64,000 nucleotides of DNA, taken from positions 2,007,551 to 2,071,550 of the forward strand of contig NZ_CP081855.1 in NCBI RefSeq assembly GCF_019797825.1, read 5' to 3'. Below are positions 8,210 to 47,227 of this stretch, piece after piece (position 1 is the stretch's first letter; each line of letters starts with the position of its first letter). The position numbers and the translations under genes are program-made. The notes under the pieces were generated by a model. That model was not told the origin of the DNA and did not search any database. It saw only the letters and a list, made by a program, of their open reading frames with translations. The stretch comes from Limosilactobacillus panis. Its GTDB lineage: Bacteria; Bacillota; Bacilli; Lactobacillales; Lactobacillaceae.

Positions 8210-8225
8210 TGTTTCATGTGAAACA
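8210..8225. promoter_or_regulatory. parS-like ParB binding site 1
   Basis: TGTTTCATGTGAAACA is a 16-bp near-palindrome, two substitutions from the Bacillus parS consensus TGTTCCACGTGAAACA. It lies between genes about 56 kb from the dnaA end. Confidence 0.7.
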
Positions 8226-8281
8226 CGACACCACTTATCCGGGAAAGGGGGTAAAATAAAGGGAGAAAGGGGACGGCAAAT

Positions 8282-9124
8282 ATGGAAAAGGCAACCGCAT
8301 TTGATTTTTCACCAACTAACGATTCTTTCTTGGGGATCACATCCCTGGGGCGGTCCGATACACTGCCTGGCCATCATTACGGTCCCGCCGTCCGTCCCTA
8401 TTACCTGATCCACTATATCCTCGCCGGTACGGGTATCTTCCGGGTAAGCGACGTTGAGTACCACCTTCATGCCGGCCAGGGCTTTTTAATTGAGCCCAAT
8501 TACCAGACCTACTACGTTGCGGACAAGTACGCCCCCTGGTCCTACGTATGGGTTGGTTTTACCGGTAAGTATGCTGATGAATTGGTCGACCAGTTAGGCC
8601 TTTCTGAAGACCTGCCGACCTTTAATAACCAGTACTCCTACGAACTGGTCGACTGCATCAATCACATCATGAAGTTACCACCGGACAAGCCGGAAAATGA
8701 GCTGCTCGCCAACAGCTACCTCTTGCGCTTCCTCAGCTTTATCGCCCGGTCGAAGCCCATTAACGCGCCCCACACAATTTTGCAAAAGAACCAGTACGTT
8801 GACCAGGCGATTCACTACCTGAGTACCCACATTGCCACGGCATCGACCGACCAGTTGGCCAGGGCCGTCAGCCTGGACCGCAGTTACCTCAGTGGCCTTT
8901 TTAAGAAGACGACCGGGCTGACTCCCAGTCAGTATATCCGCAACTTCCGCATCACGAAGGCCCGCCACTTACTGGAGTCCTCCCAACTGACGATTGACGA
9001 GATTGCCCAGGCCAGTGGCTACGAGCACGCTAATTCTTTTTCCCGGATCTTCAAACGTACGTATGGCCTCAACCCGCGTGAATACCGCAAGCAGGCTCAG
9101 GGAGAACACAAACAAGGTCGCTAG
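8282..9124 (+). CDS. AraC-family regulator with cupin domain (MsmR/RafR-like)
   Basis: A 280-residue regulator. Residues about 30-110 form a cupin/AraC-binding sugar-sensing domain (HYILAGTGIFRV, HLHAGQGFLIEPN). Residues about 180-275 hold the double helix-turn-helix (DQLARAVSLDRSYLSGLFKKTTG and IDEIAQASGYEHANSFSRIFKR). The architecture matches MsmR/RafR activators of alpha-galactoside and multiple-sugar genes. It is convergent with an alpha-galactosidase gene, its probable target. An AAAGGGG ribosome binding site precedes the ATG. Confidence 0.85.
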   Translation: MEKATAFDFSPTNDSFLGITSLGRSDTLPGHHYGPAVRPYYLIHYILAGTGIFRVSDVEYHLHAGQGFLIEPNYQTYYVADKYAPWSYVWVGFTGKYADELVDQLGLSEDLPTFNNQYSYELVDCINHIMKLPPDKPENELLANSYLLRFLSFIARSKPINAPHTILQKNQYVDQAIHYLSTHIATASTDQLARAVSLDRSYLSGLFKKTTGLTPSQYIRNFRITKARHLLESSQLTIDEIAQASGYEHANSFSRIFKRTYGLNPREYRKQAQGEHKQGR

Positions 9125-9156
9125 TCCGAAATCGCGGATACTAACGACCTTTTTTT
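9114..9156 (+). terminator. Terminator between the AraC regulator and alpha-galactosidase genes
   Basis: AAGGTCG-TAGT pairs with ACTA-CGACCTT, followed by a T tract of eight. It begins inside the end of the regulator gene and separates it from the convergent gene. Confidence 0.75.
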
Positions 9157-9158
9157 CA

Positions 9159-11387
9159 TTATTTTGCTTCAAAGGTGAATAGGCGGCTGTAAAAGTCAGT
9201 TACCTGCTTGGTGGCAGCTGACTGTTCCGACTCCGCATCGGAAACTACAAGGCCAATATTGGCAAGCTCTTGACCATAGTAGCAACCACAATCCTGGCCA
9301 CTCTCTTCTTTAACCTGGTATTCCTGGTCGGCGAGGAGGCCTGGGATCCGCTGCAGGCGGTACTCAGCGTTAACATCGTTGAGCATCTTGAAGTAGCCCA
9401 GTGCGGCATGTCGTTGGTCGGAAGACACCACCAACCAGGCAGTGAAATTCCCCTCAAACGGTGTCTTTAACCGGTAGAAGCGCCCAAACTGGAATAGGCG
9501 CCGGTACTTCTTCATGAAGCTAACCTGGGCTTTAATCTGGGTTAACTCATCATCGGTTAACTTCCCCAGGTCGAGTTCGTAACCCAGGTCCCCGAAAAAG
9601 GCCACGTCCCCGCGTGTCTTTAATGGCGTTATCCGGTTGACCTGTTCGTTAGGGCATACCGAAACGTGAGCACCCATTGCACTGGTCGGGTAACAATATG
9701 AGGTGCCCGTTTGGATTTTCAGCCGCTTGCCTGCGTCAGAGTCATCACTTGTCCAGGTCTGTGGTGCATAGTACAGCATCCCCGCATCGAAGCGACCACC
9801 ACCAGAAGCACACGATTCAAAGAGGACCTTCGGGAAGGCCTTGGTTAGCCGGTCATAGAGCTTGTAGACTCCCAGGATGTAGCGGTGGAAGATTTCTCCC
9901 TGCTGGTCCGGACGGTAGGCGGCGGAGTAGCATTCAGTGATATTCCGGTTCATGTCCCACTTCACGTAGTCAACGTGCCCGTCCTTAATAACCTTAGCAA
10001 CTAGTCGGTAAATATAATCCACCACTTCTGGCCAGGAAAAATCGAGAACGTATTGCCGGCGGCCCTGGGATGGGTGCAGATCTGGTGTTTGGATGATGTA
10101 GTCGGGATGCTTACGGTAGAGGTCACTATTTTTATTGACCATTTCCGGTTCGAACCACAGGCCAAACAGCATCCCCAGCTGGTGAATTTTCTTCGACAGG
10201 CCGCTAATTCCGTCAGGCAGGCGGTCACGGTTGACCCACCAGTCGCCCAGGCCGGCCGTTTCCTTTGTCCGTTCCCCAAACCAGCCATCGTCGAGAACAA
10301 ATAGTTCGATTCCAAGTTGCTGGGCTTGCTTGGCGAGTTTTAGTAGCTTTTCTTCGTTAAAGTCAAAGTAGGTAGCTTCCCAGTTGTTGATTAGAATAGG
10401 ACGCTCGCGGTCACGCCAGTAACCTCGGGCAAGGCGGGTCTGGTAAAGACGGTGGAAGGCCTGGCTGAGACTATTCAGGCCTTCACTGGTGTAGACCATC
10501 ACCGCTTCGGGAGTTTGGAACGACTCCCCCGGCTTGAGCTTCCAGGAGAAGTAGAAGGGGTTAATTCCCATTTGGACCCGGGTCACCTTATAAGCGTCCA
10601 CCTCCGCCTGGGCAAGGAAGTTGCCACTGTATATGAGTGAAAAGCCATATGCTGAACCCTGGAATTCGTCGGTGTGGGGCCGTTTTAAAATCACAAACGG
10701 GTTCTGCATGTGACTCGAAGCGCCCCGGGTACTACCCACAGACTGGATACCGGGACGGAGGTGGGCCACTTTCTTTTGCCGTTCCCGACCCCAGGCACCG
10801 GAGAACTGGACCCAGTCGTAGTCGTCGTCCGGCAGATCCAGGTTCATACTCATCGCCGTCGTCAGTTGATGGGCTGCTGTCCCCTGGTTAACAAAGCGAA
10901 CGCTGCGGGCAATCGCATTGTGGTCCGTGAAGATGGTATAGTAGAGGATCATTTCAACGTCGGTAAGGTCGTCACGAAGGGTAACCGTCAGCGTCGTAGC
11001 TTCACTATCGTCTTCGGCGTACGTAGCGGGAAGGCCGGGTAAGGCTGGCTTCCCCGCATAGATTTGATGACTGATATAGTGGAAGTTCGTCACCGTGCTA
11101 CCGTTGGGTTGCTTGAGTTCCACCGCTGGCATCCGGTAGTCACTGGTTCCGTAGGACGGGTACTCCTGCTTGACGTTCCCGAGGGAGAATTTGTAGTCAT
11201 CGTAGACGTAGCTCATCATCGGTCGGTACCCATTTTCGACCAAATAACCATGGTCAGCCCGGTCCGGAACCCGGGCACCGAAGTAAAGTTGGCCTAACTG
11301 ACCGTTCCTTAGTAGCTTAATAATGTAACTAATATGGTCATTGTACAGGTGAAATTCCTGGCTCGTTTGGTGGTACTTGATCGGCAT
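9159..11387 (-). CDS. Alpha-galactosidase, GH36
   Basis: A 742-residue cytoplasmic enzyme of full GH36 length. An N-terminal beta-sandwich (about 1-320) precedes the (beta/alpha)8 barrel. VDYVKWDMNR places the nucleophile at Asp478 and SCASGGGRFD with TWTSDDSD places the acid/base at Asp548, the positions known in Geobacillus AgaA/AgaB. It hydrolyses alpha-1,6-galactosides such as melibiose and raffinose-family sugars. No transporter gene is adjacent. A cre-like site lies 43 bases upstream of the start and the convergent AraC gene is the probable regulator. The ribosome binding site (GAGAG) is weak. Confidence 0.92.
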   Translation of the reverse strand: MPIKYHQTSQEFHLYNDHISYIIKLLRNGQLGQLYFGARVPDRADHGYLVENGYRPMMSYVYDDYKFSLGNVKQEYPSYGTSDYRMPAVELKQPNGSTVTNFHYISHQIYAGKPALPGLPATYAEDDSEATTLTVTLRDDLTDVEMILYYTIFTDHNAIARSVRFVNQGTAAHQLTTAMSMNLDLPDDDYDWVQFSGAWGRERQKKVAHLRPGIQSVGSTRGASSHMQNPFVILKRPHTDEFQGSAYGFSLIYSGNFLAQAEVDAYKVTRVQMGINPFYFSWKLKPGESFQTPEAVMVYTSEGLNSLSQAFHRLYQTRLARGYWRDRERPILINNWEATYFDFNEEKLLKLAKQAQQLGIELFVLDDGWFGERTKETAGLGDWWVNRDRLPDGISGLSKKIHQLGMLFGLWFEPEMVNKNSDLYRKHPDYIIQTPDLHPSQGRRQYVLDFSWPEVVDYIYRLVAKVIKDGHVDYVKWDMNRNITECYSAAYRPDQQGEIFHRYILGVYKLYDRLTKAFPKVLFESCASGGGRFDAGMLYYAPQTWTSDDSDAGKRLKIQTGTSYCYPTSAMGAHVSVCPNEQVNRITPLKTRGDVAFFGDLGYELDLGKLTDDELTQIKAQVSFMKKYRRLFQFGRFYRLKTPFEGNFTAWLVVSSDQRHAALGYFKMLNDVNAEYRLQRIPGLLADQEYQVKEESGQDCGCYYGQELANIGLVVSDAESEQSAATKQVTDFYSRLFTFEAK

Positions 11388-11429
11388 TATATCGTGCTCT
11401 CTTCACAAATTTAGCTTTATTTTAGCTGG

Positions 11430-11443
11430 TGAAAGCGCTTTTG
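11430..11443. promoter_or_regulatory. cre-like site upstream of the alpha-galactosidase
   Basis: TGAAAGCGCTTTTG matches the core TGAAAGCGCTTT of CcpA sites, with the last bases off consensus. It is in the expected promoter-proximal position for catabolite repression. Confidence 0.6.
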
Positions 11444-11491
11444 CCGTTGATTAATCGTGAGTAAAAGGGAACATTTCGTGGGGTTCAATAA

Positions 11492-11547
11492 TTGACCGCC
11501 GCACTAATTGATTGTATACTATTTTATATAAAATAGTATACAATCAA
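11492..11547 (+). promoter_or_regulatory. Promoter and 40-bp perfect palindromic operator of the antitoxin gene
   Basis: TTGACC (11492-11497) and TATACT (11515-11520) with a 17-base spacer form a near-consensus promoter. The -10 box lies within a 40-bp perfect palindrome (11508-11547) whose half-site is TTGATTGTATACTATTTTAT. The palindrome ends just before the ribosome binding site. Autoregulation by the downstream RelB/DinJ-type protein is the natural reading. Confidence 0.8.
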
Positions 11548-11562
11548 GGGAGAGTGCTTTAT

Positions 11563-11904
11563 ATGGCGCAGATTAATATTAAAGTTGATGACCAGTTAAA
11601 GGATGACGTAAGTGCCATTTTCAATGAAATGGGGCTCGACATTACCACTGGTATTAAAATTTACCTCAAACGGGTCCAGCGGGATAAGCGGATCCCTTTC
11701 GAGATGACTAGCAACCAATTTGACGTCCAAAAACTTGCTCAGCGCTACCAAGCCGGGGACCAAGAAGTCATTGCTAACCTAAACGAGCTCTTCAACGCCC
11801 TGAACAGTCAAAGAAAACAATCAACCGGGATTGGCGGCGCAATTTTGAACAATAAGCACCGCGGAGGGACTGGCGTCGGCGGTTCCATCCTCAACAAACG
11901 TTAA
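11563..11904 (+). CDS. Orphan RelB/DinJ-family antitoxin with glycine-rich repeat tail
   Basis: A 113-residue protein. Residues 1-55 (INIKVDDQLKDDVSAIFNEMGLDITTGIKIYLKRV) are the ribbon-helix-helix DNA-binding region of RelB/DinJ antitoxins. The C-terminus carries a duplicated motif, TGIGGAILNNK at 88-98 and TGVGGSILNKR at 103-113, which I do not recognise from ordinary DinJ proteins. No RelE/YafQ toxin gene follows; the next gene is hpt 275 bases away. The ATG at 11563 has a GGGAGAG ribosome binding site; an upstream start would lie inside the operator palindrome. It may be a solo regulator or bind a toxin encoded elsewhere. Confidence 0.75.
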   Translation: MAQINIKVDDQLKDDVSAIFNEMGLDITTGIKIYLKRVQRDKRIPFEMTSNQFDVQKLAQRYQAGDQEVIANLNELFNALNSQRKQSTGIGGAILNNKHRGGTGVGGSILNKR

Positions 11905-11910
11905 ATAACG

Positions 11911-12040
11911 AAAAAAAAGCTGGAAAGCATTAAGACACTCCTGGTGTCTAGCTATGAACGAAGGTCGTCACTTTTAGCGCCTATCCTCCGTCTTATGCTA
12001 GCCATACAGGTCACCGGGGAGCTTTCCAGCCTCCTTTTTT
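11911..12040. repeat. Hairpin repeat element, copy A
   Basis: Outer arms GCTGGAAAGC (11919-11928) and GCTTTCCAGC (12021-12030) enclose about 90 bases and are followed by TTTTTT, so it can terminate plus-strand transcription. The minus strand carries the family core GTATGGCTAGCATAAGACGG, shared with elements near 35.6 kb and 55.6 kb. Confidence 0.65.
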
Positions 12041-12178
12041 GGTCAAATTTGCCAGTCGCCCTTTAAATAGTTCAGATTTATGTTAAAATTCAAGAGTTAA
12101 AAGGACTCAGCAAAGCAATTGTTCCGTAAAACACGAACATTGTTTTGGCGGGCAGCGTCACGACAGAAGGAGAATTTG

Positions 12179-12715
12179 ATGAATAACGATATTGAACAAG
12201 TCTTATACAACCAGGCACAGATTAACCACCGAATGGACGAAATCGCCAGCCAACTAACGGCTAAGTACCAGGACCAATGCCCCTTGATTGTTTCCGTCAT
12301 GACGGGAGCAGTTGTCTTCACGGTGGAAATGATCAAGCGGCTCAAATTTAAGCTCAACCTGGACTATGTTGATGTCTCTAGCTATGCCGACGGTACCCAT
12401 GCCGGAAAGGTCAAACTTGTTCAGGACCTGTCATCAAGCATTGAAGGGCGACCCGTCATCATTATGGAAGACATCATCGATACCGGTCATACCTTGAAGT
12501 ACCTGGCCAACCTGTTAAAGGGGCGGGGAGCAAAGAGTATCGAGATCTGTGCCCTTCTCGATAAGCCCAACCGCCGAGAAGTGAACGTTGAGGCAGACTA
12601 CGTTGGTTTTAAGGTCCCCAACGAATTCATCGTTGGCTACGGTCTTGATTACAGCGGTCTCTACCGTAACCTCCCCTACATTGGAATCTTGGAACGGTCC
12701 GTTTACGAAAATTAA
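12179..12715 (+). CDS. hpt: Hypoxanthine phosphoribosyltransferase
   Basis: A 178-residue cytosolic enzyme of the purine salvage pathway that converts hypoxanthine or guanine plus PRPP to IMP or GMP. The PRPP-binding loop VIIMEDIIDTGHT lies near residue 100, MTGAVVFTVEMIKRL is the pyrophosphate loop region, and the base-binding end DYVGFKVPNEFIVGYGLDY is complete. The start at 12179 follows AAGGAG; the extension to 12119 lacks one. Here it is monocistronic, bounded by a hairpin repeat upstream and a terminator downstream, not in the usual tilS-hpt-ftsH cluster. Confidence 0.93.
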   Translation: MNNDIEQVLYNQAQINHRMDEIASQLTAKYQDQCPLIVSVMTGAVVFTVEMIKRLKFKLNLDYVDVSSYADGTHAGKVKLVQDLSSSIEGRPVIIMEDIIDTGHTLKYLANLLKGRGAKSIEICALLDKPNRREVNVEADYVGFKVPNEFIVGYGLDYSGLYRNLPYIGILERSVYEN

Positions 12716-12728
12716 AATTATGCCAAAG

Positions 12729-12760
12729 TAACCTGTTATCACTTGGTAACGGGTTATTTT
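12729..12760 (+). terminator. Terminator after hpt
   Basis: TAACC-GTTA pairs with TAAC-GGTTA and is followed by TTTTTATTT. Confidence 0.75.
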
Positions 12761-12778
12761 TATTTCTTGCAATCTACC

Positions 12779-13651
12779 ATGTTTAAAAAATATAGCGTTA
12801 ATGATATTTCAAAATATTTTTCCATTCCCAAACAAACAATCCGTTTTTATGAAGATAAAGGCCTAATCCACAGTCATCGTGACTCTCAAAACGGCTATCG
12901 CTACTATACCTATGAGGATATCAATCAAATCTTCGACTTAGCTATCTTTCATCCTCTCGGTTCTAACCTGCAGGAACTTAATACTCTTTTAAATAAAGGT
13001 GACCCGGATGATTACCAATCAATGCTCTTGCAAAAGAAACATGAACTGCAAGAAAAAATTAATCATCTTCAATCACTAAACATGCAGATTGACAGTATTG
13101 TTGGTAAAATTCAGCAGGCCCAAAAGGGAATCAATAAGACATTTAAAATTGAGACCTGCCCTAGACTAATAATTAATAACTTAACTGATTACTCGCCCCA
13201 CGGAGTCCTGTTCAACTCCCCATACAAAGCGAATAAGGAAGCCTGCTTCTGCTGTAGTTTATCTACGTCAAAGAAAATTATTTCTTACCGGTGGGGGTTC
13301 ATCACCGATATTCCTGGACAAGATAGCCTTGTAATTAATCCGCAATTGGCAATTAGTGAAATTGTTAATTTGGAGCATGAGGGCGAATTACTATCACGAC
13401 TAAACCAAAAAGTTAATCAGTACCAAGAAGAGACAAATTATAAACTAGGTAATCAAATTATCGGCAAGTTACTTTTACGATGTCATTTTCATGGTATTCG
13501 CCAACGGTTTACCAAAATATGGATACCAATAATAAAAAACGCTCAAGACGGATATAGATTCCATCTTGAGCGTTTTAAGCTGATTGGGCTAGCTGGATTC
13601 GAACCAGCGCATGACGGTACCAAAAACCGTTGCCTTACCGCTTGGCTATAG
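12779..13651 (+). CDS. MerR-family regulator whose frame runs on into tRNA genes
   Basis: Residues 1-70 (YSVNDISKYFSIPKQTIRFYEDKGLI, NGYRYYTYEDINQI) are a MerR DNA-binding domain, followed by a coiled-coil (about 75-115) and an effector-binding-like C-terminal region with a CFCC cysteine cluster. The gene is clearly more A/T rich than its neighbours. No ribosome binding site is visible before the ATG. The last 37 or so codons read through an opposing terminator (13537-13577) and the antisense of tRNA-Gln, so the natural stop seems to have been lost near 13537. The gene may be decaying or recently inserted. Confidence 0.6.
   Translation: MFKKYSVNDISKYFSIPKQTIRFYEDKGLIHSHRDSQNGYRYYTYEDINQIFDLAIFHPLGSNLQELNTLLNKGDPDDYQSMLLQKKHELQEKINHLQSLNMQIDSIVGKIQQAQKGINKTFKIETCPRLIINNLTDYSPHGVLFNSPYKANKEACFCCSLSTSKKIISYRWGFITDIPGQDSLVINPQLAISEIVNLEHEGELLSRLNQKVNQYQEETNYKLGNQIIGKLLLRCHFHGIRQRFTKIWIPIIKNAQDGYRFHLERFKLIGLAGFEPAHDGTKNRCLTAWL
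13537..13577 (-). terminator. Terminator of the tRNA-Glu/tRNA-Gln unit
   Basis: AACGCTCAAGA pairs with TCTTGAGCGTT across a 15-base loop; on the minus strand a T tract of six follows. It closes the minus-strand tRNA transcript. Confidence 0.8.
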
Positions 13652-13655
13652 CCCA
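13584..13655 (-). tRNA. tRNA-Gln (anticodon TTG)
   Basis: A minus-strand cloverleaf with acceptor arms TGGGCTA and TAGCCCA, a TTTTGGT anticodon loop giving anticodon TTG, and a GGTTCGAATCC T-arm. CCA is not encoded. It is cotranscribed with the tRNA-Glu six bases upstream. Confidence 0.92.
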
Positions 13656-13660
13656 ATAAA

Positions 13661-13734
13661 GTGACCCGTGCGGGATTTGAACCCACGATACCAGCGTGAA
13701 AGGCTGGTGTCTTAACCACTTGACTAACGGGTCA
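13661..13734 (-). tRNA. tRNA-Glu (anticodon TTC)
   Basis: A minus-strand cloverleaf with acceptor arms TGACCCG and CGGGTCA, anticodon stem CCAGC and GCTGG around a TTC anticodon, and a GGGTTCAAATCCC T-arm. CCA is not encoded. Confidence 0.92.
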
Positions 13735-13787
13735 TTCGACAGCACAAATCATTTTAATAAATTTTAATTTAAAAAGCAAGAACTTTT

Positions 13788-14027
13788 TTATAACTTTATC
13801 TGTCGATGAATCAAATTACCATACGAGTGCTGGTCCCGCTCAATCACCTTCGCCCGGTTTTCTGCTTTGATCCAGTAGTCCAATTCATGGGCCGCTACCA
13901 ATGGCCGGTAAGTTTCTGGATAACGTTGGCGATATTCCTGCTGCTTAATAGCTAGTTGCTTTTCATATGCTCGCTGGCAATCTGCCACTGTCTTGGCCCC
14001 GGCTAACGCTGCTTGGTAGTCACTCAT
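13788..14027 (-). CDS. Small hypothetical protein, 79 residues
   Basis: A charged soluble protein (rich in Gln, Arg, Lys and Glu, predicted mostly helical) with no signal peptide or membrane segment. I do not recognise the family. The ATG at 14027 is preceded by GGAGGAAATACC, a strong ribosome binding site, which supports real translation; the longer frame to 14045 would start inside that site. It lies between the tRNAs and an esterase gene on the same strand, 54 bases downstream of the esterase start side. Confidence 0.65.
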   Translation of the reverse strand: MSDYQAALAGAKTVADCQRAYEKQLAIKQQEYRQRYPETYRPLVAAHELDYWIKAENRAKVIERDQHSYGNLIHRQIKL

Positions 14028-14081
14028 TGGTATTTCCTCCTCCAATCCTAATTTTCAAATGGTAGGATTAACTATAAAATA

Positions 14082-14828
14082 CTAGTCTTTAACAAATTGG
14101 GTTACCGTTGTAAGAATCTCACCCCGTTTGGCCCCTGTCAGCTTATGATCCGTACCTTCCATTAGGTAAAGCTTACTTTCCGGCAAAATTACGTTATACT
14201 TTCGCGATGCTTCTGGCGAAACAACTTTATCAGCCAGGCCATGAATAATAAGGGCGGGGCCCGCAAAATGTTGAGCAGTTTCGTAAATTGGTAGTAGCTG
14301 GGCCGTCCGGAAATACTGCCCACTAACGTCCTGACCATGTACCGTGACCTTCATTGGAATGTGATTAGGGTCGTACTTAGTCCCCTGGCACTCGCCTACT
14401 AAGGCATCATCCTTTAAGGTAGCAGCCGGTGCCAGGAGGACAAGTTTATCAACTACGTCCCGGTAGTAGGCTGCTAACATTGAGGCAACCACCCCACCCT
14501 GGGAATGCCCCACTAGGTCGATAACTTTGGCCCCCATCTTTGCCCGCACAAAGTCAATCATCGCCATTCCATCGAGTAATTCGCTTAATACGGTCATGTT
14601 AGCAAAGTCGCCGTCACTTTGCCCACAACCAGCAAAATCCATTCGAAGAGTTGCCAGACCCGCCGCATTTAAGGCATGAGCTAAATCATACAAGAGGTTC
14701 CCCGCTTCATAGCCACGGTTGCCCTGGAAGCCGTGCATTAAGATTACTACCTGCTCATTTTCTAGACTGGTCGCTCCCTCTAAAACACCGCGAAGCGTAA
14801 GTCCTTCCCGCTTGATTTCAATCTTCAT
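14082..14828 (-). CDS. Alpha/beta hydrolase, cinnamoyl (feruloyl) esterase-like
   Basis: A 248-residue soluble esterase. The nucleophile elbow VGHSQGGVVASMLAA gives Ser109, ADKVVSP gives Asp200 and EGTDHKL gives His228. This is the triad layout and much of the surrounding sequence of the Lactobacillus johnsonii cinnamoyl esterase LJ0536 (Ser106, Asp197, His225). That enzyme cleaves ferulate and related hydroxycinnamate esters, and the LAPAATLKDDAL block corresponds to its substrate lid. There is no signal peptide, so it acts on imported esters. A GGGGAGAAAG ribosome binding site precedes the ATG. Confidence 0.82.
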   Translation of the reverse strand: MKIEIKREGLTLRGVLEGATSLENEQVVILMHGFQGNRGYEAGNLLYDLAHALNAAGLATLRMDFAGCGQSDGDFANMTVLSELLDGMAMIDFVRAKMGAKVIDLVGHSQGGVVASMLAAYYRDVVDKLVLLAPAATLKDDALVGECQGTKYDPNHIPMKVTVHGQDVSGQYFRTAQLLPIYETAQHFAGPALIIHGLADKVVSPEASRKYNVILPESKLYLMEGTDHKLTGAKRGEILTTVTQFVKD

Positions 14829-14943
14829 TTTCTTTCTCCCCTTCTTTAGTGGTCGCTCTTTGAACTATATCCTATCTTTACATTAATGATAATATAATTA
14901 TTAATATCAAACCATATATTCACTATTTGAAATATAGAAGCTG

Positions 14944-14979
14944 AAAAGGCTGGGAGAAAAAAATCTTTTCTCACCAGCC
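14944..14979 (-). terminator. Terminator downstream of asd
   Basis: GGCTGG-GAGAAAA pairs with TTTTCTC-CCAGCC and ends in TTTT on the minus strand. A diverged relative lies at 55449-55482. Confidence 0.7.
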
Positions 14980-15008
14980 TCGTCTTGTTTTCCAAATGTT
15001 TTCTGATA

Positions 15009-26057: not shown

Positions 26058-26087
26058 ATTTTAAACTGCTAGTGTAATACAGCGTTT

Positions 26088-26220
26088 TTCTTCTCCCATC
26101 CAGACTATACTGTCGGTACCAGACTTGCACTGGTTCAACCACTGGTCACTGTCGACTAGCGGGTCACGGACTTCAAGTTGCCTTGTCACCGTCGGTTGGG
26201 AATTTCACCCGGCCCCGAAG
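26088..26220 (-). promoter_or_regulatory. FMN riboswitch (RFN element)
   Basis: The minus strand contains the diagnostic RFN segments in order: CTTCGGGGC-GGGTGAAATTCCC, AACCGACGGTGA, AGTCCGTGACCC, and GACAGTATAGTCTGGATGGG with AGAAGAAA. It binds FMN and switches off the downstream rib operon. A promoter with TTTACA-17-TACACT lies just upstream (about 26240-26270). Confidence 0.95.
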
Positions 26221-26351
26221 AAAACTAACTTTCAATTTATCTATAGTGTACGTGCTTACTAACTTTTTGTAAAGGCTTTCTTTAACATTTAAGCTAAATT
26301 AGTCCACTTTCCACATGTACTTCTGGAGGATTTGACTGACCCCCACGGCAA

Positions 26352-35831: not shown

Positions 35832-36808
35832 TTAGAATTCATCAAGGATTATTTGCTCCTGAACAAACTGGTCAAAGAATGGCAGCATAAACTGAACATA
35901 ACCATACCCCGCCGGCATAATAATTTGGTCATCAATTAACTTGCGCCGATAAACCGAAATATAGTTAGGTGCCTTGGCCATAATCTGGCTAATATCCTGG
36001 GCCTTAACCTTTTGCTGGCCAGACTTGACCATGGCCTGAACAAACTCGCGCTCCTTCATTGACATCTCGTGGTAGACCTTGTAGTAGACATTTCTAAAAA
36101 GGTCACTGGTGTAGTGGTCAAGGATTCCATCAACCGTTTCCTTACTAATTCGGCTAGTTGACTGCTTGTGAGATTCCTGCCAGACCCAGTAACCAAGTAG
36201 CTGGAAGGCATAGGCAAAACCCTTTGTCTGTTTTGTCATGTAAAGAAGTGTTGTCGAGTCAACCTGGTAGCCTGCTTTCCGAAAAATATGCGCATAGCTC
36301 TCTTTGATACTTTCGACGCCAAGCGGATTAAGCGTTATTCGATTTGCCCCCTTAGGGTTGCTTTGACCTCATCAATAGTAATGAGAATATTAATTCCTTT
36401 TTCAGTAAACTTCTGTAGCAATTGGTGGAACCTGGACAGAAATTCCCCATCTTCATCAGAGCCCCCAATTCCGGTACTAAGTTGAATCCCTTTAAATTCT
36501 ACTTTCAAATCAAAATCCTTAAAGATTTTCAGCGTGATTATTTTTTCACGTAACTGAGTTAAAAGGGAATCTAATAAGTCATCATCCAGTATCAAATTCA
36601 CAACTTGCCAATTGTTTCTTTTTGCTAATTCGTTTGCAACATCAGTCATCAACGTAGTCTTACCAGCGCCACGCTGACCATAAATCAAAGAGGTTCAGAA
36701 AGGTGAATTAGAACGATTCAATTCATCAATTACACGCTGATTCAATGCATTTCGGTCAAGGAAAACGCTTGGTACAGTCCCGAAACTCGGGTTAAAAGGG
36801 TTGTCCAC
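35832..36808 (-). pseudogene. AAA-type ATPase (lactobacillar 'ATP-binding protein'), broken
   Basis: The frame begins at a GTG (36808) behind GAGGTGATTAGC and encodes DNPFNPSFGTVPSVFLDRN. An in-frame TGA then interrupts it before SLIYGQRGAGKTTLM (Walker A). ILITIDEV (Walker B) follows at about 36365. There a deletion with frame change joins KATLRGQ to NRITLNPLGVESIKESY, and the C-terminal part resumes with MTKQTKGFAYAFQLLGYWVW to 35832 (winged-helix-like end, MAKAPNYISVYRRKLIDDQ). At least two lesions make it non-functional. A remnant of a second copy lies at 29309. Confidence 0.8.
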
Positions 36809-36959: not shown

Positions 36960-37125
36960 ATCATCCGTATTTATCGTATACTGCCTGTGTTGGGGTAGGA
37001 ACTCCAGAGTTATTGTCCAGCGGAACGGAATGTGAACGCTGGAAGGAGGCTACTTGGCTGCTTTGGTTTTCCGCATTCACCACGGACAACCGTCGATGGT
37101 TCCCTAACAAATAAATTTTAGGGAG
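36960..37125 (+). promoter_or_regulatory. Structured leader of folT, candidate regulatory RNA
   Basis: About 165 non-coding bases with several hairpins: AACTC/GAGTT, CCAGCG/CGCTGG near 37017-37042, and CCACGG/CCGTC-TGG near 37078-37098. The last one, TCCCTAA (37101-37107) with TTAGGGA (37118-37124), buries the ribosome binding site. This is the layout of a translation-controlling riboswitch. I could not match it to the known THF riboswitch. Confidence 0.45.
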
Positions 37126-39691: not shown

Positions 39692-39710
39692 ATCATTAAA
39701 GATTTCAAAA

Positions 39711-39995
39711 GCGATGAGAAAGAAGAGTAAAACGTCGCATTCGTAAAGTGAGCTGGTGACAGTGAGAGACCAGCCGACCCTGGACGTTTGAAAAACACTT
39801 TCTCGCAGTGCCGCTGACCCAAATAATCACTAGATTAAAGTAGGCTCAGCCGTCCCCGGTACGTTACCACACCGGTAGAACGTGTTTGCGTTCGAAGAGC
39901 GGTCTAAAAATTAATATTTTTAGGCAACTTGGGTGGTACCGCGGAATAAAGCCTTTCGTCCCTTCGATTTACGGGGGATGAAAGGCTTTTTATTT
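39711..39995 (+). promoter_or_regulatory. T-box leader, asparagine specific
   Basis: Stem I closes between GAGAAAG (about 39716) and CTTTCTC (about 39798), with the AGTA element after the 5' arm. The specifier position reads AAC (39794-39796), an Asn codon. The T-box sequence GGGTGGTACCGCGG is at 39931-39944. A terminator hairpin (AAAGCCTTTC with GAAAGGCTTT, then TTTATTTT) ends the leader. Uncharged tRNA-Asn should promote readthrough into asnA. Confidence 0.92.
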
Positions 39996-40028: not shown

Positions 40029-41039
40029 ATGAGTTTGATTATTCCACAAGACTACGACCCAAAGTTATCTATCCGTGACACCGAAGCAGCTATCCGGTTC
40101 ATCCGGGAGAACTTCCAGGATGAATTCGGCCACGAACTACACCTGCAACGGATGTCCGCCCCAATGTTCGTTGAAAAGGGCACCGGGCTCAACGATAACC
40201 TGAACGGGGTTGAAAAGCCAGTCTCCTTCTCCATGAAGGGTCTGCCAAGCGAAACCATTGAAGTGGTCCACTCCCTGGCTAAGTGGAAACGGATGGCTTT
40301 GAAGAAGTACGGTTTCGGAATGCACGAAGGCTTGTACACCAACATGAACGCCATCCGGAAGGACGAGGATCTCGATAACTTCCACTCCATCTACGTTGAC
40401 CAGTGGGACTGGGAAAAGATCATTGCCAAAGAAGAACGGACAGAAACGACTTTGAAGGCCACCGTTCGGCAAATTTTCAAGGTCATCAAGAAAATTGAAC
40501 GTGAACTCTGGGAACTTTACCCGGACGCTGTTTACCAACTGCCAGACGAAATTCACTTCGTTACAACTCAGGAATTAGAAGACCGCTGGCCAGACTTGAC
40601 CCCAATGGAGCGGGAAGATAAAATTGCTAAGGAACTTGGTGCCGTTTTCGTAATGAAGATTGGTGATAAGCTGAAGCGCAGCGGCAAGCCACACGATGGC
40701 CGGGCACCCGACTACGATGATTGGCAACTCAACGGTGATATTATTTTCTGGTACAAGCCCCTTCAAAAGAAGCTGGAAATCTCCAGCATGGGGATTCGGG
40801 TTAGCCCTGAATCAATGAAGGAACAGCTGCAAAAGGCCGGTGCTGAAGATCGGGAAAAGCTACCGTTCCACCAAATGTTGCTGAAGGGTGAACTACCATA
40901 CACCATTGGTGGTGGGATTGGTCAATCGCGGCTCTGCATGCTGCTCCTTGGCAAAGCCCACGTTGGTGAAGTTCAAGCCAGTGTTTGGCCACAAGAAATG
41001 TTAGACAAGTGCGCTGCCGCACACATTCAGATTCTGTAA
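40029..41039 (+). CDS. asnA: Aspartate-ammonia ligase
   Basis: A 336-residue ATP-dependent asparagine synthetase that uses ammonia and resembles class II tRNA synthetases. Motifs include [51 protein letters not shown] and the C-terminal [22 protein letters not shown] precedes the ATG at 40029; the extension to 40020 covers that site. It is first in the operon with asnS under the Asn T-box. asnB elsewhere in the window provides a glutamine-dependent route. Confidence 0.96.
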
Positions 41040-41063
41040 TCTTAATTTAGGAGTGAGTATTAG

Positions 41064-42362
41064 ATGGAGACAATTACGATCAGCGAATCCCCAAAGCACA
41101 TGGGTGAAACTGTCAAGATTGGTGTTTGGTTAACTGATAAACGGTCAAGTGGGAAGATTGCCTTCCTACAGCTCCGTGACGGAACGGGATTTTTCCAGGG
41201 AATCATCCGGAAGAACGATGTTTCACCTGAAACATTTGACCTGGCAAAGCACGACTTACACCAGGAAACGAGTTTTTACGTTACCGGTGAAATTACCGAA
41301 GATAAGCGTTCCAAATTCGGGTACGAAATTCACATTCAAGAAATTGAAGTTGTGGGCAAGAGTGAAGACTACCCGATTGGTAACAAGGAACACGGGATTG
41401 ACTTCCTGTTAGACAACCGTCACTTATGGTTGCGGAGCCGCAAGCCATGGGCTTTGATGCGGATCCGGAGCCGGGTAAAGCTGGCCACAATGGAATTCTT
41501 CGACAAGCACGGCTTCACCCAGTTCGATGCTCCTGAATTAACGGGAAGTGCTCCAGAAGGAACGACGGAACTGTTTGAAACGGACTACTTTGACCGTAGT
41601 GCATACCTATCACAATCTGGTCAATTATATGAAGAAGCCGGGGCCATGGCATTAGGCCGCGTTTACTCAATGGGCCCAACCTTCCGGGCCGAAAAGTCCA
41701 AGACCCGGCGGCACCTGATGGAATTCTGGATGATTGAACCAGAAATGGCTTGGTGCCACGAAGAAGAGAGTGAAGAGATTCAGGAACAATACGTTGCTTA
41801 CATGATCCAGGACCTGATTGACCACTGCTCACGGGAACTGGAAATGGTTGGTCGGAGCGTCGAAAGCTTGAAGCCATTTACTGAATTGCCATACCCACGG
41901 ATCACCTACAAGAAGGCCATCGAAATGCTGCAAGAAGGTGGCATTGATGTTAAGTACGGCGACGACTTTGGTTCACCGGAGGAAACTTACTTGGCGGACC
42001 AATTTAAGAAACCGGTCTTCATTAAGAATTACCCCAAAGAAATCAAGGCCTTCTACATGCCATCTAATCCTGAAGATGACCGCGAGGTTATTTGTGCCGA
42101 CCTGCTGGCCCCAGAAGGTTATGGTGAAATCATCGGTGGTTCGGAGCGTTCATACGATTACGAATACATCACCAATAATCTGGAAGAAAACGGCCTAAGC
42201 AAGAAAGAGTACGGCTGGTATGACGATCTCCGCAAGTACGGTTCAGTACCGCACTCTGGCTTTGGGATGGGTCTGGAACGGTTCTTAGCATGGGTAACCT
42301 TGCAAGACCACATCCGGGAAAACATCCCATTCCCACGGATGCTTAACCGCTTGAACCCATAA
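41064..42362 (+). CDS. asnS: Asparaginyl-tRNA synthetase
   Basis: A 432-residue class IIb synthetase with an OB-fold anticodon domain (about 15-100), motif 2 ([24 protein letters not shown]) and motif 3 ([12 protein letters not shown]). It charges tRNA-Asn. TAGGAG precedes the ATG. It sits 24 bases after asnA, so both follow the T-box. A parS-like sequence lies in the codons DVSPET. Two tandem hairpin repeats begin at the stop codon. Confidence 0.96.
41219..41234. promoter_or_regulatory. Weak parS-like sequence in asnS
   Basis: TGTTTCACCTGAAACA matches the palindrome except for a changed central base. It is in a coding region, so it may be chance. Confidence 0.35.
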
Positions 42363-42366
42363 AAAA

Positions 42367-42486
42367 GAAGTGCGAAGTGGCCAGAAGTGGACCGGATGAC
42401 TAGCATCGCAAAAAGGTCTGGCGCAACATGCGGCGGGCCTTTTTGTGTGCTAGGCACTAGGTCCACTGCCACGCAGCACGTTAACA
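42367..42486 (+). repeat. Hairpin repeat element, tandem unit C1
   Basis: A 120-bp unit starting GAAGTGCG and ending GCAGCACGTTAACA. The halves pair along their length (AGTGGACC with GGTCCACT, AAAAAGG with CCTTTTT). The core GGATGACTAGCAT matches the family core. Confidence 0.65.
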
Positions 42487-42609
42487 GAAGTGCGGAAAGC
42501 CGCGTATTAGGGCCGGATGGCCAGTATAGGAAAATGGTTAGCACGGATACGGGCTAGCCATTTTTCGTAACTGGACACTCAGGCCCGGCGGCTTGTAGCA
42601 CGTTAATAA
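42487..42609 (+). repeat. Hairpin repeat element, tandem unit C2
   Basis: A 123-bp unit with the same start (GAAGTGCGG) and end (GTAGCACGTTAATA) as C1 and its own compensating stem (AAAATGGTTAGC with GCTAGCCATTTT, AGCCGC with GCGGCTT). The core is GGATGGCCAGTATAGGAAAA. A third start, GAAGTGC, follows at 42610. Confidence 0.65.
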
Positions 42610-42614
42610 GAAGT

Positions 42615-43643
42615 GCAAAATCCCCCGCAGAGGGGCGACTTCTCATTGCTGAGATTTTCTACACCAATGAAATTGAAAGCGTCAAAACCAGCCAAATTGA
42701 AATTGGGACGGTCATTCAAGAGAATAACCTGATTGCCCATCGTCAAAATAACGTTTCTAAACGACGTCTCGGCTCAACAATTAAACTTTACCAGCAAACG
42801 CAACATGGTAAGCCAATTCACATTAGTACCCTTCACGATTTTCGAAAGATTTACGATATTCTTCTTAAGGGTGAAATCACCGCGGACCGACTCCCCGATG
42901 GCCAAATTTTCCGGGACCAACTACCAAACGGTGAAGCCCTGACAATTAGTTCCGCCACTAAGGTCGTCCACCGACCACCCGTTAGCGAAAGTAAAATCCA
43001 GCAGGCGTTGACCACGTTGATTACGTTCATGAATGACGATCATATGCCCACTCTCTTTAAGGCCCTCATCACCCATTTCTTCTTTGAAAACACCCACCCG
43101 TTCCTAGACGGCAATGGACGGATGGGACGGTACCTACTTTCTTCCTATATCTCCAGCAAGTTTGACCGCTTTACTGGCCTTTCAGTGGCAACGGCCATTC
43201 ACGCAAACGTCCAGCACTACTACAAGGTCTTCACTGAAGCCGATAATGCGGAGAACCGTGCCGACTTAACCTCTTTTATTGAGTCCCTTCTTGATATTCT
43301 CGTGAGTCAGCAGCAAGAGAACCTTGTTAACTTACGTCAATCGATGACAAAACTAGACAATGCCAAACGGGAAATCCGTCAGTGGATTGAACACCACCAA
43401 GCACATTTTCCTGAAAAGATATCACCTGAGCTAGTCGGTCAGGTATTATTCTCGCTTGCCCAGTCAAAACTCTTCTCATATCAGACCGCCCTGGGGATTC
43501 GGGACAATGAAATTATTGACAATAATAAGCAAAAGGGGATTACAAAGGCTCAGACCCGGCGAGCAATTGACTACCTGACTGCCGTTGGTGCAATCAAGCT
43601 CATGTCTGCCAAGCCCAAGCGACACGAAATTTCAATTTTTTGA
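42615..43643 (+). pseudogene. Fic-family protein gene lacking its 5' end
   Basis: An open frame of about 340 codons with no ATG, GTG or TTG until 43008. It contains EIFYTNEIESVKTSQIEIG, the inhibitory-helix region of Fic proteins. The catalytic motif HPFLDGNGRMGRYL follows in the standard spacing, then a helical and winged-helix C-terminal part. Fic proteins transfer AMP from ATP to target hydroxyls. The N-terminus is replaced by the hairpin repeat pair. Translation from the internal TTG at 43008 would remove the inhibitory helix but keep the catalytic motif. Confidence 0.75.
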
Positions 43644-43752
43644 TAATTATGTTTCAGAGTACAGTACTGTCGCGTATCGTTGCGATTATTTTTACTTTTG
43701 TCGTCCCCACCGGTATGATATTAGTAAACAAGTAATTTAAGGAGGAATCGGT

Positions 43753-44550
43753 ATGATTCGCGCAGTGGCAACAGATATTGATGGGACGTTTCTACGTCAG
43801 GACCGGACGTATGACCGGAAGCTTTTCGCTCAAGTCTATGCGGCGATGCAAGCGCAGAGGGCCCGTTTAATTATCGCTAGTGGGGACCAGTATTACTTTC
43901 TGCGGTCCCTTTTCCCTGACCAGGCCGACCAGCTTGCGTATGTTGCAGAAAATGGTGTGCTGACCATTGACCAAAACGAGGAGCTCGCCTGCGACCGCTT
44001 ATCAGCAGAAAATGTCCGTAAGATCACGACATACTTGGACACCCTCCCCGGAATCAACTACTGCGCAAGTGGCCGCCAGTACGTCTATGTTTTGAACCGA
44101 GCTGACGACAATTTTAAGCGGATCATTCCCAACTTCTACACCCGGATCAAGACCGTTGACGACGTGAATAACGTTGACGATGACTTTATCTTCAAATTCG
44201 CCCTGAATGTCCCCCACGACCAGCAGGCGACCCTCATCCACAACATCAACACCCGGTTTACGGGAATCGTCCGGGCAACTGCCAGTGGTTATGGCGCGGT
44301 GGACCTGATTATCCCGGGAATGGATAAGTCCTATGGCCTCAAGCTCCTTCTCAAGCGCTGGCATCTGACCCCAGCAGACTTGGCCGTGTTTGGTGATGGG
44401 GAAAACGACCTGGAGATGTTTGACCTTGCCAACACAAGTTACGCAATGGGAAACGCCCCGGCCAACGTGCAGGCGGCCGCAACTCAGATTATCGGCACCA
44501 ACAATGACCAGGCGGTTCTGCACCAGCTCGCGGAAATTTTTCTGCCGTAG
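43753..44550 (+). CDS. HAD-superfamily Cof-type phosphatase
   Basis: A 265-residue hydrolase with HAD motif I ATDIDGTFL, motif II IASGD, the lysine of motif III in GMDKSYGLKLLLK, and motif IV VFGDGENDLEMF. The C2-type cap marks the Cof/YidA subgroup, which dephosphorylates sugar phosphates and cofactors; the actual substrate is unknown. AAGGAGG precedes the ATG. The terminator overlaps its end. Confidence 0.9.
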   Translation: MIRAVATDIDGTFLRQDRTYDRKLFAQVYAAMQAQRARLIIASGDQYYFLRSLFPDQADQLAYVAENGVLTIDQNEELACDRLSAENVRKITTYLDTLPGINYCASGRQYVYVLNRADDNFKRIIPNFYTRIKTVDDVNNVDDDFIFKFALNVPHDQQATLIHNINTRFTGIVRATASGYGAVDLIIPGMDKSYGLKLLLKRWHLTPADLAVFGDGENDLEMFDLANTSYAMGNAPANVQAAATQIIGTNNDQAVLHQLAEIFLP

Positions 44551-44594
44551 AAAAAGGATCCGGAAAACTTCACCGTTTTTCGGGTCCTTTTCTA
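44551..44594. terminator. Terminator between the HAD and glycosyltransferase genes
   Basis: AAAAGGA-CCGGAAAAC pairs with GTTTTTCGGGTCCTTTT; it can serve both convergent genes. Confidence 0.75.
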
Positions 44595-44596
44595 AA

Positions 44597-46099
44597 TTAT
44601 TCTCTTATCCCTTCACTGTTCAAGAAGTTAGCCCACTGCTGGGTAACGTTAGTAAAGGAGAACTTGGCAGCCGCCGCCTGCGCATGGCTAGCATAATATT
44701 CCAATTTAGCAGGATTGGTCAATAGCTCTTCCAGGGTAACGTACAAGGCGTGAGGGTCCCCCGCAGGTAACAACCGCCCGCTGACCTGGTCATTGATAAT
44801 TTCGGCGGGTCCGTAGTTAATATCATAGCTAACTACTGGGCAGCCGTGTCCCTGGGCTTCTAGAAGGGCCATTGCAAACCCTTCGTACGAACTGGTTAGT
44901 ACCTCAATTTGGGCCGTTTCGTAAACCTTCGTCAGATCATGCTGATAACCGCAGAAGTGGACGTATTCTCCTGCCTGTCGGGTCTTCACCAACCGCTTCA
45001 GTGAATTAGACGTTGCGTAATTATCCCAACTATCATCGAAGCCGTAAATCTTCAAGTCAACCTGGGGGTACTTCGCATGGAGAAGAATAACCGTATTGAT
45101 GATGTGGTCCAGGCGCTTAACATTCGTCAACCGGGCCACGGCAATCAGTTGACCCGGTCGTCGCTTACTGAACGGAATCTGCTTGTTAAGCTGCTTGTCA
45201 GTCAAGTAGGTCACGGGAATACCGTAACTAGCAGACGTCTTAAATCGCTGGGCCGCATCCCGGGCTTCCCGCTTGGTTGCCGAGATCAGGCCGCTGATTT
45301 GCCCCTCCTGAAGCATCTTTTCCAAAGGTTCATAGACTTCAAATAATTTACTATCGGGTTGTCCATCAACAGTATAGGTAGAGTGAAAGACCTGGTAGCA
45401 TGGCACGTGTCCTTTCATTAACTTGAAGGCAGCAAAATCGGCGTCCGACCGATCATTGATTAAAACGGGGTGCGCCGTTTCCCCTATTAAACGGTCCAAA
45501 AAGTAAGCATGCAGGGCCATCTCGTTATCAAATTGGTGTGTACTCCCCTGGTTATTCAACTGGATGAGGGTCAACACGGCAATATTGTTTTCACCACCCC
45601 GGTAATGGTAAACCAGCTTTACACGTCCCTGACCATCATAGTACTGACGCGTTACCACCCGGGCGCGGTCTTCAAAGAACTCCGTATAGGATAAGCAACC
45701 CTGGTCATAAAAGTCCCGCCGGTCAGTAAAACCAAAGCGGTCCAAATAGTCAACGTAGTAAAGACGGTTACCGTTCAAAACAACCTTAATGCGCTCCTTA
45801 CCGTCGCGTTTGGCCACAAAATCTTGAACTGTAAATCCCGGTTGGTGCAAGATTTTATCAATGATTACCTGGTCATTTCCCACTTTTTGATACGGTAACT
45901 GTTGAAAATACTGGAAAAGATTAATTACCCGCCCAGTAATACCAAGCTTCTTTTCCACTTCGTAGTGAGCATGGTTATATTCTAAGGTAACAATCTTGGC
46001 TGGCTGCTTCAAATAATCAAAGATTTTGAGCCGCCGCACCTGAGCCAGCTCAATCGCTGAGGTTAACATGTCCTGACGACTAGTAATAAAGTAAAACAT
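44597..46099 (-). CDS. Glycosyltransferase, GT4 (TagE/GtfA-like)
   Basis: A 500-residue retaining glycosyltransferase. The C-terminal GT-B domain carries AVARLTNVKRLDHIINTVILLH, then VLTSSYEGFAMALLEAQGHGCPVVSYDINYGPAEII, with the EX7E-type donor-binding region. The N-terminal half includes the beta-meander (about 60-170) seen in GtfA/TagE enzymes. These glucosylate wall teichoic acid or serine-rich adhesins; no SecA2 or adhesin gene is near, so a teichoic acid role is more likely. AGGAAGGAATC precedes the ATG. Confidence 0.8.
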   Translation of the reverse strand: MFYFITSRQDMLTSAIELAQVRRLKIFDYLKQPAKIVTLEYNHAHYEVEKKLGITGRVINLFQYFQQLPYQKVGNDQVIIDKILHQPGFTVQDFVAKRDGKERIKVVLNGNRLYYVDYLDRFGFTDRRDFYDQGCLSYTEFFEDRARVVTRQYYDGQGRVKLVYHYRGGENNIAVLTLIQLNNQGSTHQFDNEMALHAYFLDRLIGETAHPVLINDRSDADFAAFKLMKGHVPCYQVFHSTYTVDGQPDSKLFEVYEPLEKMLQEGQISGLISATKREARDAAQRFKTSASYGIPVTYLTDKQLNKQIPFSKRRPGQLIAVARLTNVKRLDHIINTVILLHAKYPQVDLKIYGFDDSWDNYATSNSLKRLVKTRQAGEYVHFCGYQHDLTKVYETAQIEVLTSSYEGFAMALLEAQGHGCPVVSYDINYGPAEIINDQVSGRLLPAGDPHALYVTLEELLTNPAKLEYYASHAQAAAAKFSFTNVTQQWANFLNSEGIRE

Positions 46100-46234
46100 C
46101 CACGATTCCTTCCTCGGTTTTTCTTAATACCTAATTTACCATATTCCATTCGCTAGTGTCGGGGAAAGTTAGGACTTGTCACCTGAATAATTGCTCACTA
46201 AAATATCAATTAAAAAGGATAAGTTGGTGAAAAA

Positions 46235-47227
46235 ATGACCACTAAAAAATTATTACTATTATCAACCGGGGGCACGATTGCCTCCGTCGTCTCTGATTCT
46301 GGCCTGGTACCCGGTGAATCTGGCGAGGCCCTGCTTAAGATGCTCGGGCGCATCCCCTATAAGATCGTTGTCAAGGACATTCTTGAACTCGACTCGTCCA
46401 ACATTCAGCCGGAGGAATGGAAACTGATTGCCCGGGAAATCTACAAGTACCGTAACGACTACGACGGAATTGTTGTTTCACATGGAACAGACACAATGGC
46501 CTATACCGCCTCGATGCTAACCTTCATGTTGCAAAATATCAATCTCCCCGTTGTCCTGACAGGTAGTCAGGTACCGATGAACGTTATTTTGAGTGACGCT
46601 CCTGGTAATCTGCAGGTTGCGTTTGCGGCCGCTGCCAAGTGCGCCCCGGGAATCTACCTGGCCTTTGAACGGCAGGTAATCCTTGGCTGCCGTAGCGTCA
46701 AGGTCCGGACAACCTCCTTCAATGCCTTTGAGAGTGTCAACGTTCCCCCTGTCGCCAGAGTTACCTCAGACGGCTTTGAAATCCAAAAACCAGAGAAGGT
46801 CAGCAACGGTCAGTGTGTACTAAACACTAACATCGACGCAAACGTTTCTCTGGTTAAGCTTTTTCCTGGTTTTGACCCCCGCCTTCTCCACGCAATGGCA
46901 CAGAGCGGTTGTCACGGAATCGTGATTGAGGCATATGGACTTGGCGGCATGACCTATATCCGGCGCAACCTGGTCGCTGCCGTTGGTAAACTAATCCAAC
47001 GGGGCATTCCGGTAATTGCCTCCAGTCAATGCCTGTATGAACGGAGCGATTTAACAAAGTATGAGGTTGGCCAGCAAGCACTCCTACAAGGGGCCATCAG
47101 TGCCCACGACATGACCTCCGAGAGTGCAATCACTAAACTGATGTGGGCCCTTGGGCAAGGGATGGATGTCGCGGCCGTTGCCAAGTTCTTTAACACCAAT
47201 GTCGCCGGTGAGGTCACTTTGAATTAA
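46235..47227 (+). CDS. L-asparaginase
   Basis: A 330-residue asparaginase of the type I/II fold. The first catalytic threonine lies in LLSTGGTIASV and the second in VVSHGTDTMAYTAS. The C-terminal part has GCHGIVIEAYGLGGM. It hydrolyses asparagine to aspartate and ammonia, counter to asnA and asnB, and could feed aspartate to asd. The stop overlaps the stop of the convergent dsdA by four bases. Both a Noc-like and a parS-like sequence lie within its first 260 bases. Confidence 0.92.
   Translation: MTTKKLLLLSTGGTIASVVSDSGLVPGESGEALLKMLGRIPYKIVVKDILELDSSNIQPEEWKLIAREIYKYRNDYDGIVVSHGTDTMAYTASMLTFMLQNINLPVVLTGSQVPMNVILSDAPGNLQVAFAAAAKCAPGIYLAFERQVILGCRSVKVRTTSFNAFESVNVPPVARVTSDGFEIQKPEKVSNGQCVLNTNIDANVSLVKLFPGFDPRLLHAMAQSGCHGIVIEAYGLGGMTYIRRNLVAAVGKLIQRGIPVIASSQCLYERSDLTKYEVGQQALLQGAISAHDMTSESAITKLMWALGQGMDVAAVAKFFNTNVAGEVTLN
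46427..46440. promoter_or_regulatory. Noc-like site 1 (inside the asparaginase gene)
   Basis: ATTGCCCGGGAAAT matches the Noc consensus ATTTCCCGGGAAAT at 13 of 14 bases. Confidence 0.45.
46474..46489. promoter_or_regulatory. parS-like ParB binding site 5 (inside the asparaginase gene)
   Basis: The minus strand reads TGTTCCATGTGAAACA, one substitution from the Bacillus parS TGTTCCACGTGAAACA. It is 34 bases from a Noc-like site. Confidence 0.65.

What the first reader, a model, noticed from the sequence alone, without database searches (positions are those of the whole stretch)
8210..46489. Five strong parS-like palindromes on the left origin arm
TGTTTCATGTGAAACA or close variants occur at 8210, 18480, 22620, 34944 and 46474, all within one or two substitutions of the Bacillus parS TGTTCCACGTGAAACA, plus a weaker one at 41219. 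A 16-bp motif recurring this often is not expected by chance. Three sit in short intergenic gaps beside terminators, two inside genes. Most have CATGTG rather than CACGTG in the middle, suggesting a ParB of altered preference. ParB is known to spread from such sites to organise origins.
Basis: partly seen in the sequence, partly recalled or inferred. Interest (0 to 1): 0.72.

Follow-up and report, generated by a model that had tools for sequence, protein, structure and literature searches.

The report
Chromosome-segregation parS cluster beside replication origin
Five to six short DNA landmarks beside the replication origin of a lactic acid bacterium are very probably ordinary docking sites for the chromosome-segregation protein ParB; the one unusual detail is that one of them is written inside the active-site codons of an enzyme gene and recurs there in several related species.

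Summary
The motifs are real and far beyond chance. The window is the last 64 kb of a 2.07-Mb Limosilactobacillus chromosome contig, close to L. panis, that begins with dnaA; if circular, as presumed, its right end abuts the origin region. The genome holds ten parS-like sites (at most 2 mismatches); all lie within 220 kb of dnaA, six in this window. It also encodes Noc, ParA and ParB in one gene cluster at +160 kb, and has 29 Noc-site matches. Published L. reuteri Hi-C (passages read) ties three parS sites to folding patterns around its origin. So this is a standard ParABS centromere: a new member of a known kind. An altered ParB is not supported: strict CATGTG-core sites occur in 82 of 148 genomes of the order, and 37 examined genomes with the same ParB recognition helix include CATGTG-only, CACGTG-only and mixed ones. 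The most interesting detail is site 46474, written in the codons of the catalytic VVSHGTDT motif of a type I asparaginase; it overlaps the best-shared 16-mers of that gene among the relatives compared, and there the His and Gly codons dictate the CATG core. Site 41219 (asnS) is doubtful. ParB binding itself was not tested.

The parts
8210..8225 (+). parS site TGTTTCATGTGAAACA, intergenic (nitroreductase / AraC-type regulator), directly after a hairpin; 55.8 kb left of dnaA
18480..18495 (+). parS site TGTTTCATGTGAAACT, starts on the base after the TAA of an HxlR-family regulator gene; 45.5 kb left of dnaA
22620..22635 (+). parS site TGTTTCATGTGAAACA, between convergent genes (NAD(P)H-binding protein / lumazine synthase ribH), directly after a hairpin; kept at the same place in genome G013 as TGTTCCACATGAAACA while the intergenic flank diverged; 41.4 kb left of dnaA
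34944..34959 (+). parS site TGTTTCACGTGGAACC inside a 290-aa ORF with no Pfam or NCBIfam match (codons of DVSRGTW); 29.1 kb left of dnaA
41219..41234 (+). weak, doubtful site TGTTTCACCTGAAACA inside asnS (codons of DVSPETF); of 13 relatives whose fetched asnS covers the place, only L. panis has it
46474..46489 (+). parS site TGTTTCACATGGAACA written in the codons of the catalytic VVSHGTDT motif of type I asparaginase; 17.5 kb left of dnaA
46235..47227 (+). type I asparaginase gene that carries the 46474 site
63999..64000 (.). right end of the window = end of contig C1; dnaA starts at C1:1, so if the contig is circular the origin region lies at this end

Best explanation
The sites are chromosomal parS sites (bacterial centromeres) of a complete ParABS system. 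ParB dimers, encoded at +160 kb with ParA and Noc, load on each 16-bp palindrome, spread on flanking DNA as CTP-dependent clamps, recruit SMC, and with ParA help separate sister origins and fold the origin region. Five good sites spread over 38 kb of the left arm, 17 to 56 kb from dnaA, form the dense part of a looser set of ten between -219 and +217 kb. Presence, position, partial conservation and cognate genes are shown here; binding, spreading, SMC loading and segregation are inferred from known ParABS systems.
For: Excess over chance in window and genome, and clustering at dnaA. Gene cluster rsmG-noc-parA-parB-DUF951-ychF (named from the sequences). Best solved match of ParB is B. subtilis Spo0J (6sdk, E 1.7e-64); of the Noc-like protein, Noc (7ol9, E 4.3e-65). 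By the spacing of the residues named in PMC7383237 (passages), ParB keeps the parS-type R and G at the two base-contact positions and Noc has Q, K, K, R (my alignment). Separate Noc-site set: 29 against 0 control. In 11 other genomes of the family all 19 CATGTG sites lie within 226 kb of dnaA (KS p about 1e-16; genomes related and two lengths rounded, so only indicative; 3 further sites in fragmented genomes not placed). Site 22620 kept in G013. Coding hits: 3 seen, mean 0.013 in 400 synonymous re-draws. L. reuteri Hi-C: parS at -180, -17 and +206 kb, each with a discrete contact pattern (PMC10197239, passages).
Against: No binding data. At the 22620 region, of 17 other genomes with any match only G013 matches over its full length, and only there is the site at that place. 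Genomes G008 and G009 have ParB but one parS match each at up to 2 mismatches. In 2 of 27 genus genomes no ParB was found (G015, G017; 75 and 66% complete), each with one parS match, so single matches can be chance. 41219 is hardly conserved.
Confidence: 0.93

Rival explanations
1. The sites are parS but read by a ParB with changed core preference (CATGTG over CACGTG).
For: Strict CATGTG 27 versus CACGTG 12 in 19 genomes of the family, and 5 versus 0 in this genome. 12 of the 13 CATGTG-only genomes among the 73 examined have the helix KSRPYIANYL, and none of 20 with S or T after KSR or KAR is CATGTG-only.
Against: The same helix also serves 5 CACGTG-only and 17 mixed genomes. CACGTG-core sites with looser flanks exist here (34944, C1:109807). 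The orthologous site flips its core from CATGTG to CACATG, which suggests tolerance.
Confidence: 0.1
2. CATGTG cores reflect avoidance of the palindrome CACGTG (for example by restriction-modification), not ParB.
For: CACGTG is a palindromic hexamer, the usual kind of restriction target (general knowledge).
Against: CACGTG is not avoided: 11 seen, 11.1 expected in 100 kb of this genome; 49 against 43.0 in 476,870 bases of 26 loci from relatives.
Confidence: 0.02
3. The genic sites (34944, 41219, 46474) are coding coincidences, and only the intergenic ones are functional.
For: Genic sites share V-S-x-G/E peptides. 46474 lies on a protein motif that is conserved anyway and many relatives lack the exact 16-mer. 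41219 is kept only in L. panis.
Against: Synonymous re-draws give 0.013 coding hits on average against 3. The best-shared 16-mers of the asparaginase gene overlap 46474.
Confidence: 0.15
4. The motifs are Noc-binding sites.
For: Noc is encoded next to ParB and its sites are similar palindromes.
Against: The sites have G at position 2 and A at position 7 of the 16-mer (parS), not A and C (NBS). A separate set of 29 NBS matches exists.
Confidence: 0.01

Closest known systems
B. subtilis parS set (ParB/Spo0J)
   Same: 16-bp palindrome; several sites, with the preferred group at -68, -63, -49, -9 kb plus a distal -304 kb (PMC8357415 passages); a site within a gene (parB; PMC4333373 passages)
   Different: Here the dense group lies at -56 to -17 kb, cores are mostly CATGTG, and noc-parA-parB lies at +160 kb from dnaA
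Limosilactobacillus reuteri I49 parS (Hi-C)
   Same: Same genus; sites found with the same pattern and 2 mismatches; scattered at -180, -17, +206 kb (PMC10197239 passages)
   Different: Three sites there, ten here. Whether the two sites near -17 kb correspond was not tested; the one L. reuteri asparaginase locus fetched (L054, another strain) differs from the window's 16-mer at 2 bases and from the consensus at 4
Streptococcus pneumoniae parS
   Same: Lactobacillales; four sites listed (PMC7022226 table passage)
   Different: Listed consensus AGTTTCACGTGAAACT and no ParA; here ParA is present
Noc / NBS
   Same: ParB paralogue with a similar palindrome; present here
   Different: NBS is TATTTCCCGGGAAATA (PMC7383237 passage); these sites are not NBS

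Membership tests
chromosomal parS | 16-bp palindrome close to TGTTNCACGTGNAACA | tested here: met
chromosomal parS | clusters near the replication origin | tested here: met
   10 of 10 within 219 kb of dnaA
chromosomal parS | cognate ParB encoded in the genome with parS-type specificity residues | tested here: met
chromosomal parS | ParB bound at the site in vivo or in vitro | not testable with these tools
   no binding data for this organism
ParABS system | parA next to parB | tested here: met
   ParA ORF at L013:13284-14054 between noc and parB
ParABS system | individual sites conserved in relatives | tested here: inconclusive
   22620 at the same place in G013 only. 46474 exact in 7 of 51 full-length relatives plus L099. 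41219 in 1 of 13. 8210, 18480 and 34944 not tested. As a set, parS-like matches occur in 27 of 27 genus genomes, own included, four of them with one match
ParB of altered core preference | recognition-helix change tracking CATGTG use | tested here: not met
   One helix covers CATGTG-only, CACGTG-only and mixed genomes; a trend in S/T helices is noted
Noc-binding site | A at position 2 and C at position 7 of the 16-mer | tested here: not met

The most novel reading that the evidence does not exclude
A centromere site is kept by purifying selection on synonymous codons inside the catalytic motif of a metabolic enzyme (asparaginase VVSHGTDT) across several Limosilactobacillus species. The CATG core of parS there is a compromise forced by the His and Gly codons, so protein coding has shaped the local form of the centromere.
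Probability: 0.55. Interest if true: 0.4.

Novelty: new member of a known kind. Interest (0 to 1): 0.27.

Why it matters
It places a full ParABS-plus-Noc system and its sites on a Limosilactobacillus chromosome. It shows that a CATGTG parS core can go with an unchanged ParB recognition helix. It offers a candidate case of DNA-level selection inside an enzyme's active-site codons, testable by synonymous recoding. For genome annotation it argues for accepting CATGTG cores when calling parS in Lactobacillaceae.

Tried and rejected
CACGTG avoidance: rejected, observed equals expected (the script's label says 24 loci, the list holds 26). Altered ParB helix: not supported. Strict terminator scan: nothing found; hairpins instead shown by folding. 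A first codon-conservation test conditioned on carriers of the exact site is circular, and one carrier (L099) was out of frame or truncated in it; it is not used, and an unconditioned test replaced it. One search used the window plus 24 of the 80 fetched loci, chosen by me as Limosilactobacillus-like (L097 and L098, also named Limosilactobacillus, and L099 left out). One search repeated it with the window plus all 51 loci L048-L098: the top two windows still overlap the site, but the margin is small (11 against 9 sharing genes; after removing near-duplicates 9 against 8). My odds for the novel case are set at 0.55 for this reason. Left-arm bias (8 left, 2 right) is not significant (p 0.11). 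Literature: 0 held papers have parS with TGTTTCATGTGAAACA, 'parS sites' with Lactobacillaceae, or parS, ParB, coding sequence and asparaginase together; the 10 listed of 40 are not about parS within genes by title. One search listed one review, not opened. Livny et al. 2007, the parS survey cited by PMC10197239, is not held, so what it says on lactobacilli is unseen.

Full report
What is there. The window is C1:2007551-2071550 of a genome of 2,129,075 bases in three contigs; C1 has 2,071,550 bases. The dnaA reading frame begins at C1:1 and is followed by frames that read as dnaN, recF, gyrB and gyrA (all but dnaA named from the sequences). If C1 is a closed circle, which I presume and did not show, the window is the 64 kb to the left of the origin region. 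A protein of the window is 98% identical to one of Limosilactobacillus panis DSM 6035, so the organism is a Limosilactobacillus near that species. The whole genome has ten at up to 2 mismatches against one for the reversed pattern. Relative to the start of dnaA they lie at -219, -144, -56, -46, -41, -29, -23, -18, +110 and +217 kb.

Cognate proteins. Two ParB-fold genes lie at C1:160-162 kb, in the order rsmG, noc, parA (soj), parB, DUF951, ychF (named from the sequences). The upstream one matches Noc structures best, the downstream one B. subtilis Spo0J. By the spacing of the residues described for Caulobacter ParB and B. subtilis Noc in PMC7383237 (passages), the ParB here has R and G at the two base-contact positions, and Noc has Q and R with the two permissive lysines. 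Noc-site matches are abundant too: 29 at up to 2 mismatches against 0 control.

The core. Four of the five good window sites have CATGTG on one strand; 34944 has CACGTG. In 148 genomes of the order (by the organism, Lactobacillales) a strict CATGTG parS occurs in 82 and a strict CACGTG parS in 105; the reversed control gave 4 matches in 3 genomes and 0. In the 19 genomes of the own family I count 27 CATGTG sites in 15 genomes and 12 CACGTG sites in 5. In 11 of those genomes other than the own, every one of 19 CATGTG sites lies within 226 kb of dnaA; 3 further sites, in three fragmented genomes, were not placed. So this form is a genuine parS form there. ParB was taken from 72 of the 148 genomes, 12 of them added because they carry a CATGTG site, and compared with the own ParB. 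The helix KSRPYIANYL occurs in 37: 12 with only CATGTG sites, 5 with only CACGTG, 17 with both, 3 with neither. That helix therefore does not fix the core. Told against this: of 20 genomes with S or T after KSR or KAR none is CATGTG-only and 9 have a CATGTG site, 7 of them among the added ones, so an influence of that position or of shared descent is not excluded. CACGTG itself is not avoided. At the ribH site the orthologous palindrome in G013 reads TGTTCCACATGAAACA, the core changed on the other half, as expected if one imperfect half is tolerated.

Genic sites. In the 48 window genes that I listed, 48,969 coding bases hold 3 hits against a mean of 0.013 in 400 synonymous re-draws. Site 46474 is spelled by GTT GTT TCA CAT GGA ACA, the start of VVSHGTDT in type I asparaginase. 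The exact 16-mer occurs in this gene in 8 of the 80 fetched relatives: four are named Limosilactobacillus, three Lactobacillus sp. and one Lactobacillaceae bacterium. Among 25 Limosilactobacillus-like genes the eight best-shared 16-mers of 951 all overlap this site. Among 52 genes of the family the two best still do, by 11 sharing genes against 9 for the next, or 9 against 8 after removing near-duplicates. Against this, L. panis (ACC for ACA) and most other relatives lack the exact form. The 41219 site in asnS is present in L. panis, but the 12 other relatives whose fetched asnS covers the place differ there in protein and DNA; I treat it as doubtful. Outside the window, the C1:109807 site lies in a frame that reads as a D-2-hydroxyacid dehydrogenase (named from the sequence), and the same 16-mer stands in the matching gene of G025 (80% identical protein).

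Mechanism and precedent. The most likely working is that of known chromosomal ParABS systems: ParB loads at parS, spreads as a CTP clamp, recruits SMC and is moved by ParA. This part is inferred from established knowledge. The nearest experimental precedent found is L. reuteri I49, where parS sites called with the same pattern at -180, -17 and +206 kb each go with a discrete Hi-C pattern (PMC10197239, passages); the same paper saw no secondary diagonal in L. reuteri. In B. subtilis the preferred group of sites also lies on the left, -68 to -9 kb (PMC8357415, passages). I did not look for SMC genes in this genome.

Verdict. The altered-preference reading is not supported. The finding is ordinary as a system, with one attractive detail, a centromere site that seems to be kept within active-site codons.

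Noticed in passing
L040, L041 (genomes G009, G008): parA is missing between noc and parB, the ParB start lacks the LGRGIEALF-type segment, and one parS match is left in each genome at up to 2 mismatches: a possible decay of ParABS. parA elsewhere in these genomes was not sought.
   Followed up: partly
L023, L032, L019 (genomes G014, G019, G026): parA also missing between noc and parB, with altered ParB N-termini, yet 4, 9 and 7 parS matches remain.
   Followed up: partly
L242:1429, L244:1197 (genomes G012, G021): parS-like sites overlap what reads as a ribosome-binding site and ATG start, so that the ATG forms part of the CACATG core.
   Followed up: no
window 26084-26226 (-), 36989-37084 (+), 39705-39966 (+): FMN riboswitch, THF riboswitch and T-box leader.
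   Followed up: no
window 36350-36706 (-): A weak DnaA-domain match with an internal TGA (C1:2043900-2044256, E 9.4e-5), possibly a remnant of an insertion-sequence ATPase.
   Followed up: no
L013:550-2160 (-): A transposase-like ORF of 536 aa next to a serS-like gene, upstream of the noc-parA-parB region; named from its sequence only.
   Followed up: no
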